Below, one piece after another: positions 27,622 to 32,410 of a DNA stretch of 64,000 bases. The translations under genes were made by a program, and so were the position numbers. The stretch is taken from positions 124,001 to 188,000 of the forward strand of contig NZ_LGHL01000048.1 in the NCBI RefSeq assembly GCF_001908205.1, read 5' to 3'. Every line of letters starts with the position of its first letter. Position 1 is the first letter of the stretch. Under the pieces are notes generated by a model. The model searched no databases. It was given only the letters and a program-made list of their open reading frames with translations, and was not told the DNA's origin. Origin of the DNA: Bradyrhizobium sp. NAS80.1 (GTDB lineage: Bacteria; Pseudomonadota; Alphaproteobacteria; Rhizobiales; Xanthobacteraceae).

Positions 27622-29082
27622 CTAGCGCGCGAGGCGATCGAGACGGTCCGACCAGGGGTCGTCTCCGCTCGCGATGCGATCATTCGTGATCAGCAAAAGA
27701 CGATCGCCTCCTGCCGCTGCGTCCCAGCGCGGCAGGTCGGCACCGTTGGGATCGCCGCTCTTCGCGAAGTTGATCCAGTAGGTGCGCATCCGGTTTGCGA
27801 CCTCGCGATCGCGCCGTGAAAACATGCCCGCACCCGGCACGCCTTCCGCGCCGAAGATGAACTGCAACTCGCGCCCGTGACCGCCATCGGGATTCGCGCG
27901 CTGCGCCTCCGGCACATAGGCGAAGCGATAGCGAAAGGTCGGCGCGCCGCTTGCGGCATGCAGGCGAGCCAGCAACCTCACCGGCTCGGAGAAAACCTCG
28001 TCGGTGTAGAAGCGCGCCGCAAGTTCGGAAGGTGTGGTGAGACCGGGGTAGAGCTTGCGCAGCTCATCGAGCGTGCCGCCTGACGATGCTAGCTGCTCCT
28101 TGATATCGAGGTCACTGTCAAACCGCGTCTCGTCATCATTCGAGCCGATGATGAGGGGAATGCGACTTTCATGTCCCGCCGCGAACCCCGCGGCGTGACC
28201 TTCGGCAATCAGGCTTCCATCGATCGCCGGGGCGAAGCTGTGCGAGGATTTTGCCAGCAATCGCTTTTCAGCGGCCAGCAGTTGCGCCGGTGAGGCCGTG
28301 CGCAAATCAGTCTCCTGCCCGAGTGCCGCTACGAATTCCCGGCCTGCGGCTTCCGCCTCCTGCGCCGGACGCAGTCGCGCGCGGCCCGGCACCGATTGCA
28401 GAATGGCTTTCTGAAACAGATCGCGCGACTGCGTACACAGCATCAGGAGCGCGATTGAGGTCGCGCCTGCACCGCTGCCAAACAAGGTGACGTTGTTCGG
28501 ATCGCCGGCGAAGGCCGCGATGTTGTCGTGCACCCAATGCAGCGCTGCAATCTGGTCCATCAGGCCGTAATTGCCAGAGCTGCCTTCCGACAGCGTGGGA
28601 TGGGTGAGCCAGCCGAGTGCGCCGAGACGATAATTGACGCTGACCACGATGAGGCCGGCCTGTGCGAGCTTTGCACCGTCGAACAACGGATCATTCGCTG
28701 TGCCGCTGACGAAGGCTCCGCCGTGGATGAACACCATCACCGGCAGCGGGCCATCGACGCCGAAGGGACGGAATACGTTCAGCGTGAGGCAATCCTCGCT
28801 CGCGCCGGGCAACGACGGCTGAAGGCACGGCGCCGCGTAGTCGTAAGCGGTCCGCATCTCCGAACTCTCGGGCGTCGCCTGTGGTGGACGCCACCGCAGC
28901 GGGCCCACCGGCGGCGTTGCGTAAGCAAGTCCCCTGAACGAGGCCACCTCGCCTTCGACGGCGCCGAGCATCTGTCCTTCACGCGTCACCGCAAATGGAA
29001 ATTGTCCGACCGCCTGGGCTACGGCCATATCGGCGCAACCGAGGAACGCGGAAGCGGCAAGAAGCGCAAGCAGGGACCGCAT
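27622..29082 (-). CDS. Type-B carboxylesterase family protein lacking the usual nucleophile serine
   Basis: 486 aa with a signal peptide (LAASAFLGCADMAVAQ) and a full type-B carboxylesterase fold: EDCLTLNVFRP signature (residues 96-106), oxyanion hole HGGAF (120-124), SVNYRLGALGWL, and WVHDNIAAFAGDPNNVTLFG. The nucleophile elbow, normally F-G-E-S-A-G, reads F-G-S-G-A-G (201-206), so glycine 204 stands where the catalytic Ser should be. The acidic residue (NDDETRFD) and His (GGHGRELQFIFG) of the triad are kept. Either Ser 203 has been recruited or the protein is a non-hydrolytic binder. The cysteine in the signal region could also make it a lipoprotein. Confidence 0.88.
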   Translation of the reverse strand: MRSLLALLAASAFLGCADMAVAQAVGQFPFAVTREGQMLGAVEGEVASFRGLAYATPPVGPLRWRPPQATPESSEMRTAYDYAAPCLQPSLPGASEDCLTLNVFRPFGVDGPLPVMVFIHGGAFVSGTANDPLFDGAKLAQAGLIVVSVNYRLGALGWLTHPTLSEGSSGNYGLMDQIAALHWVHDNIAAFAGDPNNVTLFGSGAGATSIALLMLCTQSRDLFQKAILQSVPGRARLRPAQEAEAAGREFVAALGQETDLRTASPAQLLAAEKRLLAKSSHSFAPAIDGSLIAEGHAAGFAAGHESRIPLIIGSNDDETRFDSDLDIKEQLASSGGTLDELRKLYPGLTTPSELAARFYTDEVFSEPVRLLARLHAASGAPTFRYRFAYVPEAQRANPDGGHGRELQFIFGAEGVPGAGMFSRRDREVANRMRTYWINFAKSGDPNGADLPRWDAAAGGDRLLLITNDRIASGDDPWSDRLDRLAR

Positions 29083-29386: not shown

Positions 29387-29615
29387 GACATCCGGTGGGC
29401 AACGCGTGGCACGGAACCGTAGCATACACAGACACATCGAGCCTGATTAGCCCGGAGAATCACGGCCATTGTGCATCGCGATAGGTGTACGCCCGCAACC
29501 TTCGCGCCGCCACGATGTCGGCGCAAACGACTACCGAAGATTGCACTTGTCCTGATGACAAGCCCGCCCCCCGGCGATAGCCTGCCGGCACAACAAAATA
29601 CACGGGAGGAATGCC

Positions 29616-32306
29616 ATGCCTGACGCAACGGTCGCCGCACGTGAGTCCAAAGCGGCGAGTGGAAAAGCCCAACAAGTCGACGTTGCCGTCGTCGGCGCCG
29701 GATTTGCCGGTCTCTATCTTCTCCATCGCCTGCGCAAGGCCGGGCTCACGACAGTCGCTCTCGAAGAGGCCGGCGATGTCGGTGGCACCTGGTACTGGAA
29801 CCGTTATCCCGGCGCCCGCTGCGATATCCAGACCATCGATTACAGCTACACATTCGATCCGGAACTCGACAAGACCTGGACCTGGTCGGAGAAATACGCG
29901 ACCCAGCCCGAGATCCTGCGCTATCTCGGCTTCGTCGCCGATCGCTACGATCTGCGCCGCGACATTCGCTTCAACACCAAGGTCACGGAAGCCAAGTGGG
30001 ACGAGGCGACAGAGCGCTGGCAACTCACCACCGACAACGGCGATCCCGTCTCCTGCCGCTACTACATCATGGCGACCGGCTGTCTCTCCGCGCCAAAGCC
30101 GCCGGAGATCGATGGCGTCAACGAGTTTAAGGGCGAGGTCTATTTCACCGGCCGCTGGCCGCATGACGGCGTCAATCTCGCCGACAAGCGCGTCGCCGTG
30201 ATCGGCACCGGCTCGTCGGGCATTCAATCGATCCCGCTGATTGCCGAACAAGCCGCACATCTGACCGTGTTCCAGCGCACGCCGAATTTCGCGCTGCCTG
30301 CGCATAATGGTCCCTCGCCGTCCGATCGCATGAGCTTTTTCCAGGACGACCGTGCGGCCTATCGCGAGCAGGCGCGGCAATCGATGGCCGGCGTGCCCTA
30401 TCCGCAGCAGATGGCCGTGAGCTGGCAATTGAGCGACGCCGAGCGCCGCGCACGCTTTGAAGAGGGTTGGGGTAAGGGCGATCTCGTCTACATCCTCACG
30501 CAGCTCTGGGCCGACCAGGCCGTCGACTTCGACGGCAACAAGCTGATCTGCGACCTCATCCGCGAGAAGATCTCGGCGGCCGTGAAGGATCCGGAGACGG
30601 CGGCGGCGCTGATGCCGCATGACCATCCTTTCGGTGCAAAACGTCCCTGCCTCGATACCAATTATTACGCCACCTACAACCGGCCCAACGTCACGCTGGT
30701 CAATCTGCGCCAGGAGCCGATCAAGGCGATCACAGCAAGCGGCATCTCGACAGACAAGCGCACCTTCGATGTCGACGTCATCGTGTTCGCGACCGGCTTC
30801 GACGCCATGACCGGCGCGATCCGGGCCGTGCATCCGATCACCGGGCGCAGCGGCAAGTCGCTCACCGATGTCTGGGCGCACGGGCCGCAGACCTACCTCG
30901 GTCTCACGGTCGAAGGCTTCCCCAACTTCTTCATGGTTACCGGTCCCGGGAGCCCGTCCGTGCTGTCGAATATGGCGGTGTCGATCGAGCAGCATGTCGA
31001 CTGGGTGGTCGACCGCCTCGCCGAGCTGCGCGACGCCGGCTTCACCACGATCGAACCGACCGAGACAGCACAGGCCGGCTGGGGCCAGCACATGGCCGAC
31101 TGTTCGATGCTGACGCTGCACCGGCTCGCCAACACCTGGTACACGGGCGCCAATGTGCCGGGTAAGGTGCAAGGCCTGATGCCCTATACCGGCGGCGTCG
31201 GCCCCTATCGCAGCATCTGCGACGACGTCGTCAGCCGCGGCATGCTAGGCTTCAAGCTCACCGGCCCCAACGTCGCAGCGCAGTGCAACGATGGCGAGGT
31301 GGTGCGCCTGCAGCCGGACGTGCGGCTGGTGCTGAACCTGCTTGCATCGCTGAATCTGCCACCGATCGAGTCGATGGGCGCGATCGGCGCGCGCGCCTTC
31401 GTCAACGAGTTCAACAAGGGCCGGCCCGCGGGACGGCCGATCGGCGACATCGTCGATGGCACCCTGCCCGGCCCCGACGGACCTCTGCCGTACCGTGTGT
31501 ACCGGCCGGCAGCGCCCGGACCGCATCCTGTCGTGGTCTACTTCCACGGCGGCGGCTGGGTGCTCGGTGACGAACAGTCGGACGAGCCGTTCTGCCGCGA
31601 CATGGTGCGGCGGACCGGCATGATCTTCGTCAGCGTCGGCTATCGCCATGCGCCCGAGCATCGCTTCCCGGCCGCAGCCGAAGACGGCTATGCAGCGACT
31701 CGCTGGATCGCGGAGCACGTCGCCGAACTCGGCGGCAAACTCGGTCCGGTGCTGGTCGCGGGCTGGAGCGCCGGCGGCAACATAGCCGCCGTTACCTGCC
31801 AGCTTGCGCGCGATCGCGGCGGGCCTGAGATCGCCGGCCAGCTCCTGGTGTGTCCGGTCACCGACTGCACCTACGATCGCCCGTCTTACAACGACAATGC
31901 GACCGGCTACTTCCTGACGCGCTCGCTGATGTACTGGTTCTGGGACCTTTACTGCTCGCCGGCCGACCGCACTGATCCGCGCGTCTCGCCGCTACGCGGC
32001 AAGGTCGCGGGTCTGCCGCCGGCCTTCGTCGTCACCTGCGAGTTCGATCCGTTGCGTGACGAGGGCGTCGCCTATGCCGAGGCGATGGCTGCTGCCGGGG
32101 TCCCGGTCGAGCAGCTCAAGGCGCGCGGCCATTTCCACTCGTCCTTTGCGATGGTGGACGTCGTGATCACCGGTGTGTCTGGACGGGTGAAGATGGCCGA
32201 GGCCTTGCGGGGCTTCGCCGGGCTTCCTCCGCAGGTCAGGCGCGGCGATGAGAACAGCCACGGTCAAACCAGCCCGGGGCAAAAGATCGCGGCGGCCGCG
32301 AGCTAA
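29616..32306 (+). CDS. Baeyer-Villiger-type flavin monooxygenase fused to an alpha/beta hydrolase
   Basis: 896 aa two-domain protein. Residues 1-550 form an FAD/NADPH monooxygenase: FAD motif [10 protein letters not shown] (25-34), [20 protein letters not shown] motif [10 protein letters not shown] (near 194-203) and the Baeyer-Villiger fingerprint F-K-G-x-x-x-x-x-x-x-W-P at 171-182, in which the usual His at position 177 is Phe. Residues 580-870 form an HSL-type esterase: oxyanion HGGGW (644-648), nucleophile elbow GWSAG with Ser 718, Asp in [10 protein letters not shown], and His in ARGHFHSSF. The first domain would turn a ketone into an ester or lactone and the second would hydrolyse it. 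It starts at ATG 29616 (GGGAGGAATGCC before it) and ends at a strong terminator. Confidence 0.9.
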
Positions 32307-32373: not shown

Positions 32374-32410
32374 ACCCCGGCACGCAGGTCCGCGTGCCGG
32401 GGTATTGTTT
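32374..32410 (+). terminator. Rho-independent terminator after the monooxygenase-hydrolase gene
   Basis: A perfect 12-bp stem (ACCCCGGCACGC / GCGTGCCGGGGT, 32374-32385 with 32392-32403) with a six-base loop, then ATTGTTT. It lies 68 bases after the stop codon. Confidence 0.8.

What the first reader, a model, noticed from the sequence alone, without database searches (positions are those of the whole stretch)
29616..32306. Baeyer-Villiger-type monooxygenase and esterase in one polypeptide, with a changed fingerprint residue
One 896-residue frame contains a full FAD/NADPH monooxygenase and then a full HSL-type alpha/beta hydrolase with catalytic Ser 718. An enzyme that makes an ester or lactone and one that cleaves it are thereby joined, suggesting channelled ketone breakdown (compare separate monooxygenase/esterase gene pairs in ketone degraders). 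In addition the Baeyer-Villiger fingerprint F-x-G-x-x-x-H-x-x-x-W-P has Phe at position 177 where His is conserved, which could alter NADPH handling or convert the enzyme to an ordinary hydroxylase/N-oxidase.
Basis: partly seen in the sequence, partly recalled or inferred. Interest (0 to 1): 0.65.

Follow-up and report, generated by a model that had tools for sequence, protein, structure and literature searches.

The report
Ketone-oxidising enzyme fused to an esterase
In this soil bacterium's genus one protein joins an enzyme that turns ketones into esters to an enzyme that cuts esters; the same fusion appears to have arisen several times in bacteria, which suggests that the two steps belong together.

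Summary
[quoted passage not shown] 46-50% to PAMO/STMO) joined by a short conserved junction to an HSL-family esterase (45% to Est8). Phe177 replaces the fingerprint His; it is no base error (Phe in 28 of 28 aligned sequences).

New here: 80 of 98 genomes of the genus carry the fusion full length. Fused ORFs fall on four branches of the BVMO tree, three BVMO-esterase and one esterase-BVMO. In 67 fused ORFs (64 distinct) the other BVMO catalytic residues, and in 66 the esterase triad, are invariant. The His is missing in 64 of 67, but also in 28 of 110 unfused frames; the association is not significant. The window's branch also has GWSAG/GYSAG for GDSAG (41 of 41).

Best reading: a bifunctional enzyme, ketone to acid plus alcohol. 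Consecutive action is well supported by comparison, channelling is untested, and conversion to a hydroxylase or N-oxidase is not supported; a BVMO with Gln at this place is active (PMC3762062). My searches listed no paper on this fusion.

The parts
29616..32306 (+). CDS of the 896-aa BVMO-esterase fusion
   Evidence: full length in 80 of 98 genomes of the genus
29604..29609 (+). GGGAGG, ribosome-binding-site-like, 6 nt before the ATG
   Evidence: sequence printed
29661..31262 (+). type I BVMO half, residues 16-549
30126..30161 (+). BVMO fingerprint F171-x-G-x-x-x-F177-x-x-x-W181-P182
30144..30146 (+). codon 177, TTC (Phe), where PAMO and STMO have His
30642..30644 (+). Arg343, aligned with PAMO Arg337
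31263..31313 (+). conserved junction, residues 550-566 (block pLDDT 94 at 551-570)
31302..32225 (+). HSL-family alpha/beta hydrolase half, residues 563-870 (overlaps the end of the junction)
31761..31775 (+). nucleophile motif G716-W717-S718-A719-G720; Trp instead of the usual Asp/Glu
32046..32048 (+). Asp811, triad acid by alignment
32136..32138 (+). His841, triad base by alignment
32374..32403 (+). terminator-like hairpin after the gene
   Evidence: 4 such sites in the region, 1.8 expected from shuffles

Best explanation
A natural bifunctional enzyme. The N-terminal half uses FAD, NADPH and O2 to insert oxygen next to a ketone carbonyl (Baeyer-Villiger reaction); the C-terminal half hydrolyses the resulting ester (Ser718-Asp811-His841), so that ketone becomes carboxylic acid plus alcohol on one chain. 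Because the closest solved BVMOs are STMO and PAMO (substrates recalled: progesterone, phenylacetone) and HSL-family esterases often take short acyl groups (recalled), the likeliest substrate type is a methyl ketone R-CO-CH3, cut to R-OH and acetate (inferred). Shown by computation: domain identity, intact catalytic residues, conserved fusion and junction, recurrent fusion. Inferred: both activities and their consecutive action. Unknown: substrate, and whether the ester is handed over directly. Phe177 is a natural variant of the fingerprint that need not abolish Baeyer-Villiger activity.
For: Domain matches. Fused ORFs on four branches of the BVMO tree, 3 BVMO-esterase and 1 esterase-BVMO; same-strand hydrolase frames within 400 bases in 14 further loci, 9 BVMO-first and 5 esterase-first. 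In 67 fused ORFs Trp59, Asp70, Phe171, Gly173, Trp181, Lys342 and Arg343 are invariant; in the 66 whose hydrolase was aligned the triad Ser-Asp-His is invariant; 64 of the 67 are distinct sequences. Low Ka/Ks in both halves and the junction. Two plasmid records with an annotated BVMO/hydrolase pair lie beside ABC importers and SDRs, a third beside an alcohol and an aldehyde dehydrogenase, and a fused relative lies beside aromatic-ring catabolic genes.
Against: No activity is shown. The mutated His lowers the efficiency of CHMO and inactivates HAPMO according to PMC3762062. The window gene stands alone, with no catabolic operon around it, and neighbours of the window's branch differ between taxa. 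Only four fusion events are seen, on a quick tree with many unsupported forks.
Confidence: 0.75

Rival explanations
1. The BVMO half has lost Baeyer-Villiger activity (Phe177) and works as an S- or N-oxygenase or as an uncoupled NADPH oxidase; the esterase half works alone on other substrates.
For: His replaced in 64 of 67 fused ORFs; mutation of this His impairs CHMO and inactivates HAPMO (cited in PMC3762062, read).
Against: The other BVMO catalytic positions examined are invariant in the 67 fused ORFs and Ka/Ks is low; BVMOAf1 with Gln is active, on sulfides as well as a bicyclic ketone, though not on cyclohexanone or phenylacetone (PMC3762062); the FMO hallmark is a change of the W, which is kept.
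Confidence: 0.12
2. The two halves act on the same pathway but not consecutively on one molecule; fusion merely fixes a 1:1 ratio and common expression.
For: Unfused pairs exist, so a physical link is not obligatory; no interdomain coordinates could be examined.
Against: Ester is the BVMO product and the esterase substrate; several separate fusions and both gene orders favour direct succession.
Confidence: 0.13
3. The first reader's channelling proposal (compatible with the best explanation): the ester passes from one active site to the other without leaving the protein.
For: Confidently modelled junction and pTM 0.86; junction Ka/Ks 0.056 over 17 codons.
Against: Not tested: no coordinates or error matrix available; fusion in both orders shows that no single geometry is needed.
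Confidence: 0.25

Closest known systems
Phenylacetone monooxygenase (PAMO) and steroid monooxygenase (STMO), type I BVMOs
   Same: Fold over the whole BVMO half, 46-50% identity, FAD/NADPH motifs, Arg337/Lys336/Asp66 equivalents
   Different: No esterase half; fingerprint His present
Est8 (PDB 4ypv) and other HSL-family (family IV) esterases
   Same: Fold over 309 residues, 45% identity, HGGG, GxSAG and triad
   Different: Stand-alone; Est8 has GDSAG, here GWSAG
BVMOAf1 of Aspergillus fumigatus (PMC3762062)
   Same: Type I BVMO at the N terminus of a predicted natural two-domain protein (905 aa) with the fingerprint His replaced; its BVMO domain, expressed fused to phosphite dehydrogenase, is active
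   Different: Gln, not Phe; the authors call the partner a putative polynucleotide synthase domain; the full-length protein gave no soluble expression
Separate BVMO plus hydrolase pairs, e.g. BpfC/BpfD in bisphenol F breakdown (PMC12724174, passages read)
   Same: Ketone to ester to acid and alcohol
   Different: Two proteins; BpfC keeps the two type I motifs as reported there

Membership tests
Type I BVMO | GxGxx(G/A) dinucleotide motifs before and after the fingerprint | tested here: met
   GAGFA and GTGSSG
Type I BVMO | [A/G]GxWxxxx[F/Y]P[G/M]xxxD | tested here: met
   [15 protein letters not shown]
Type I BVMO | FxGxxxHxxxW(P/D) fingerprint, full | tested here: not met
   Phe at the His position; F, G, W, P kept. 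Single departures (F/Y or H/Q) were accepted in the genome mining of PMC3762062, so this lowers but does not exclude membership
Type I BVMO | Catalytic Arg and Asp (PAMO Arg337, Asp66) | tested here: met
   Arg343, Asp70
Type I BVMO | Baeyer-Villiger activity with NADPH and O2 | not testable with these tools
   -
HSL-family esterase (family IV) | HGGG oxyanion motif, GxSxG, Ser-Asp-His triad | tested here: met
   HGGGW 644, GWSAG 716, D811, H841
HSL-family esterase (family IV) | GDSAG or GTSAG-type subfamily motif | tested here: not met
   Trp717; PMC6986724 (passages) describes Asp or hydrophilic residues there; NCBIfam LipP1 scores 331.8, under its cutoff of 350
Bifunctional ketone-to-acid enzyme | Both halves on one translated chain | tested here: inconclusive
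   One open frame, no convincing internal start; translation as one chain was not measured
Bifunctional ketone-to-acid enzyme | Ester made by one half is cleaved by the other | not testable with these tools
   -

The most novel reading that the evidence does not exclude
The esterase half docks on the BVMO half and takes part in its cofactor-domain movement, which frees the fingerprint His (replaced by many residues in three of four fusion lineages) and, in the window's lineage, reshapes the esterase entrance (GDSAG to GWSAG), so that the ester is handed over directly: a self-contained ketone-cleaving enzyme that arose repeatedly.
Probability: 0.12. Interest if true: 0.75.

Novelty: new variant of a known kind. 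Interest (0 to 1): 0.5.

Why it matters
The natural substrates and roles of BVMOs are widely unknown (abstract of PMC4498894 in the listing); a repeated natural fusion names the partner and the reaction sequence directly. It offers possible ready-made ketone-to-acid catalysts, a natural set (Phe, Tyr, Leu, Ser, Val, Ile, Thr, Arg, His at one column) for testing what the fingerprint His does, and an enzyme whose removal in Bradyrhizobium could reveal the ketone that these soil bacteria use.

Tried and rejected
Base error or frameshift: rejected (28 of 28 with Phe; full length in 80 of 98 genomes). Separate translation of the esterase: the six ATG/GTG codons at residues 543-587 have no convincing ribosome site (by eye). 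Operon in the window: of ten frames scanned, the matched neighbours are a P-type ATPase, a carboxylesterase, a double-psi beta-barrel protein, malic enzyme, a mechanosensitive channel, a polyphosphate kinase 2 and a metallo-beta-lactamase-fold protein; three frames had no match; no pathway. Conserved neighbours outside the genus: none consistent; 20 stretches of 10 loci were scanned (one of them, in L022, is the N-terminal part of the fused frame itself), picked by a rough codon-bias caller that did not work for the low-GC loci.

Link between fusion and loss of His: four independent pairs, mean 2.3 the same way, 0 the other way, 1.7 without difference, sign test median p 0.5: not significant. 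Duplicates: of the 67 fused ORFs three BVMO domains are exact copies of another (L050/L137, L018/L094, L015/L117), probably genomes held twice; without them 61 of 64 lack His. Two of these pairs are also among the 28 sequences. Rows dropped: L010 (short) and rows over 80% alike with the same state for the tree, leaving 103; L037 and L038 have unknown state (contig ends) and L032 was set to fused in that tree, but all three count as unfused in the 110. The lineage count rests on a quick tree (SH-aLRT only) with many open forks. Hydrolase hits shorter than 200 residues were left out; one of the 42 fused ORFs of the window's branch is missing there, probably L019, whose hydrolase holds a masked or unknown stretch. 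Loci from the genome search carry only about 1.5 kb of flank, so more distant pairs there were not seen. Interdomain distances could not be measured: model coordinates are not readable. The literature library holds open-licence papers only, and long result lists were cut at 20-25 rows.

Full report
What is there. Window 29616-32306 (+) is one open frame of 896 residues, preceded by GGGAGG six bases before the ATG and followed by a terminator-like hairpin at 32374-32403. Pfam finds FAD/NAD(P) domains in residues 22-228 and Abhydrolase_3 in 640-842 (253.8 bits). NCBIfam finds LipP1 (331.8 bits, cutoff 350) and PtlE (324.4, cutoff 1100), both under their cutoffs. By sequence the N-terminal half matches STMO (578 bits) and PAMO (559 bits) end to end, and the C-terminal half matches Est8 (272 bits). 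An AlphaFold2 model from 51 aligned sequences has mean pLDDT 89.5 and pTM 0.86, with 94 at residues 551-570; each of the 50 listed solved structures matches one half or the other, PAMO over 527 residues and Est8 over 309.

Phe177. PAMO has His at this column (H173 in PMC3762062) and STMO too. The codon is TTC at 30144-30146, and all 28 aligned sequences (the window's and 27 relatives', two of them duplicates) have Phe. The other BVMO positions examined are intact: Asp70, Lys342 and Arg343 align with PAMO Asp66, Lys336 and Arg337, and F171, G173, W181, P182 of the fingerprint are kept.

Distribution. Of 98 genomes of the genus (own included), 85 have a match at E <= 1e-190; in 80 it covers at least residues 2-869, in 5 it is partial, and 13 have none at that limit. 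The nearest named fused relatives are Bradyrhizobium, so the window is most likely Bradyrhizobium (inference). In a sample of 249 genomes of the order, 8 match at the same limit: 7 of the genus, and one of another genus with an unfused BVMO. In 149 genomes of the family, 8 match at 1e-200: 7 of the genus and one of another genus (G816, residues 1-890, with one TAG in the match). In 398 genomes of the phylum, 21 match at 1e-170. In 385 of the class, 80 match at 1e-150; 9 of these 80 proved fused among the matches fetched, the matches without a locus were not examined. In 105 genomes of the family of G621, 44 match at 1e-150, among the fetched ones 12 esterase-BVMO and 2 BVMO-esterase fusions; in 7 of the family of G371, 2 match, both fused. 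Named fused loci outside the genus come from Vineibacter, Pseudonocardia, Mycobacterium, Acidimicrobiia, gammaproteobacterial, burkholderial, alphaproteobacterial and actinomycetotal MAGs, three Bacillota, Solirubrobacterales and Actinomadura. A plasmid of Bradyrhizobium sp. CB82 carries another fused relative, annotated only as an alpha/beta hydrolase.

How often it arose. All 182 loci held were scanned with profiles of the two halves. Of the 177 with a BVMO frame, 67 are fused (64 distinct sequences): 50 BVMO-esterase and 17 esterase-BVMO; 110 are unfused, among them 14 with a same-strand hydrolase frame within 400 bases (9 BVMO-first, 5 esterase-first). The first esterase-BVMO case was L050, followed by L120 and L121. 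On a tree of 103 less redundant BVMO domains, column 177 left out, fusion needs four changes: the window's branch, a branch with L041/L043/L112/L119/L131, the Bacillota branch, and the esterase-BVMO branch. A tree of 45 hydrolase domains also keeps the window's branch together (19 rows, SH-aLRT 100), and sets the esterase-BVMO fusion L050 with the five esterase-first pairs (6 rows, 100), although the BVMOs of those six do not form one clade. So the halves of the window's branch have travelled together.

Residue 177 across the set. Window's branch: 39 Phe, 1 Tyr, 1 Ser, 1 Leu of 42. Second branch: Thr 2, Ser, Leu, Arg of 5. Esterase-BVMO: 10 Val, 7 Ile of 17. Bacillota: His in 3 of 3. Unfused: 82 His of 110 and 28 others (14 Arg, 4 Ser, 3 Gln, 3 Val, 2 Phe, 1 Trp, 1 Asn), of which 3 (L032, L037, L038) are cut by contig ends and group with the window's branch. 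Loss of His is thus common among the fusions but neither required by nor limited to them; with four independent contrasts the association is not significant. The variety of residues suggests relaxed need for His rather than one new fixed function (inference).

A second change. In the hydrolases of the window's branch the residue before the catalytic Ser is Trp in 40 of 41 and Tyr in 1; in the 25 other fused and 23 free hydrolases read it is Asp or Glu in all 48. PMC6986724 (passages) divides HSLs into GDSAG and GTSAG types, the latter with hydrophilic residues; no held paper has the term GWSAG together with hormone-sensitive lipase or Baeyer-Villiger (papers with GWSAG alone would not have been listed). 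Triad residues are invariant in the 66 fused hydrolases read. The junction keeps Asn followed by Asp/Glu in 20 of 20 rows of the window's branch shown, and has the lowest Ka/Ks (0.056 over 17 codons; halves 0.130 and 0.105; the tail 0.408; 27 comparisons with the window).

Function. BVMOs make esters, HSL enzymes cleave them. Such pairs are known as separate genes: BpfC/BpfD in PMC12724174 (passages) and, from a title in a reference list, a 4-sulfoacetophenone BVMO with an esterase. Annotated neighbours of fused or paired relatives include muconate-pathway genes, P450s, SDRs, alcohol and aldehyde dehydrogenases and ABC importers and, in L043, aldehyde dehydrogenase, an AMP-binding enzyme and a Rieske oxygenase. 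The window gene itself has no such neighbours. The methyl-ketone proposal rests on the nearest solved relatives and is inference.

The hydroxylase/N-oxidase proposal. PMC7570161 (passages) gives FxGxxxHxxxW for BVMOs, FxGxxxHxxx(Y/F) for FMOs and a lone conserved His for NMOs. Losing His while keeping W and P does not move the sequence towards FMO or NMO. PMC3762062 (abstract, sections on expression and Discussion, and passages read) reports the BVMO domain of BVMOAf1, Gln at this place, as active and stereoselective, kcat about 0.5 per second, without activity on cyclohexanone or phenylacetone; the same paper cites reduced efficiency for the CHMO mutant and inactivation for HAPMO. So activity is plausible, and a reduced rate or narrow range is possible.

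Novelty. Of the searches of the open library aimed at such a fusion (lists cut at 20-25 rows where longer), none listed a paper whose title or abstract start describes a natural BVMO-esterase fusion; I read seven papers in part, none whole. A two-domain natural BVMO is on record (BVMOAf1, by prediction). I therefore file it as a new variant of a known kind.

Noticed in passing
window 27622-29082 (-): A type B carboxylesterase gene lies divergently upstream of the fusion and is kept near it in six named Bradyrhizobium loci (L013, L014, L015, L018, L019, L030), not detected in L016 or L017. A similar gene is about 3 kb from the fused gene in Mycobacterium sp. ACS1612 (L027).
   Followed up: partly
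window 31761-31775: Esterase motif GWSAG instead of GDSAG; among the 89 hydrolases read, Trp or Tyr occurs only in the window's fusion branch.
   Followed up: yes
L050, L120, L121 and 14 other loci: Reverse-order fusions, esterase first and BVMO second, with Val or Ile at the fingerprint His position.
   Followed up: partly
L022:2941-8592: The stop-to-stop frame of the fused gene is 1884 residues long; the extra N-terminal stretch has no Pfam match at 1e-8, probably a chance open frame in high-GC DNA.
   Followed up: partly
L038 (contig CAMCZG010000042.1): A MAG labelled Bifidobacterium breve carries a BVMO of the fusion branch; probably a mislabelled or mixed bin (guess from the taxon only).
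   Followed up: no
window 32211-32303: The last 31 residues evolve fast (Ka/Ks 0.41) and the model is unsure from residue 875 on.
   Followed up: no
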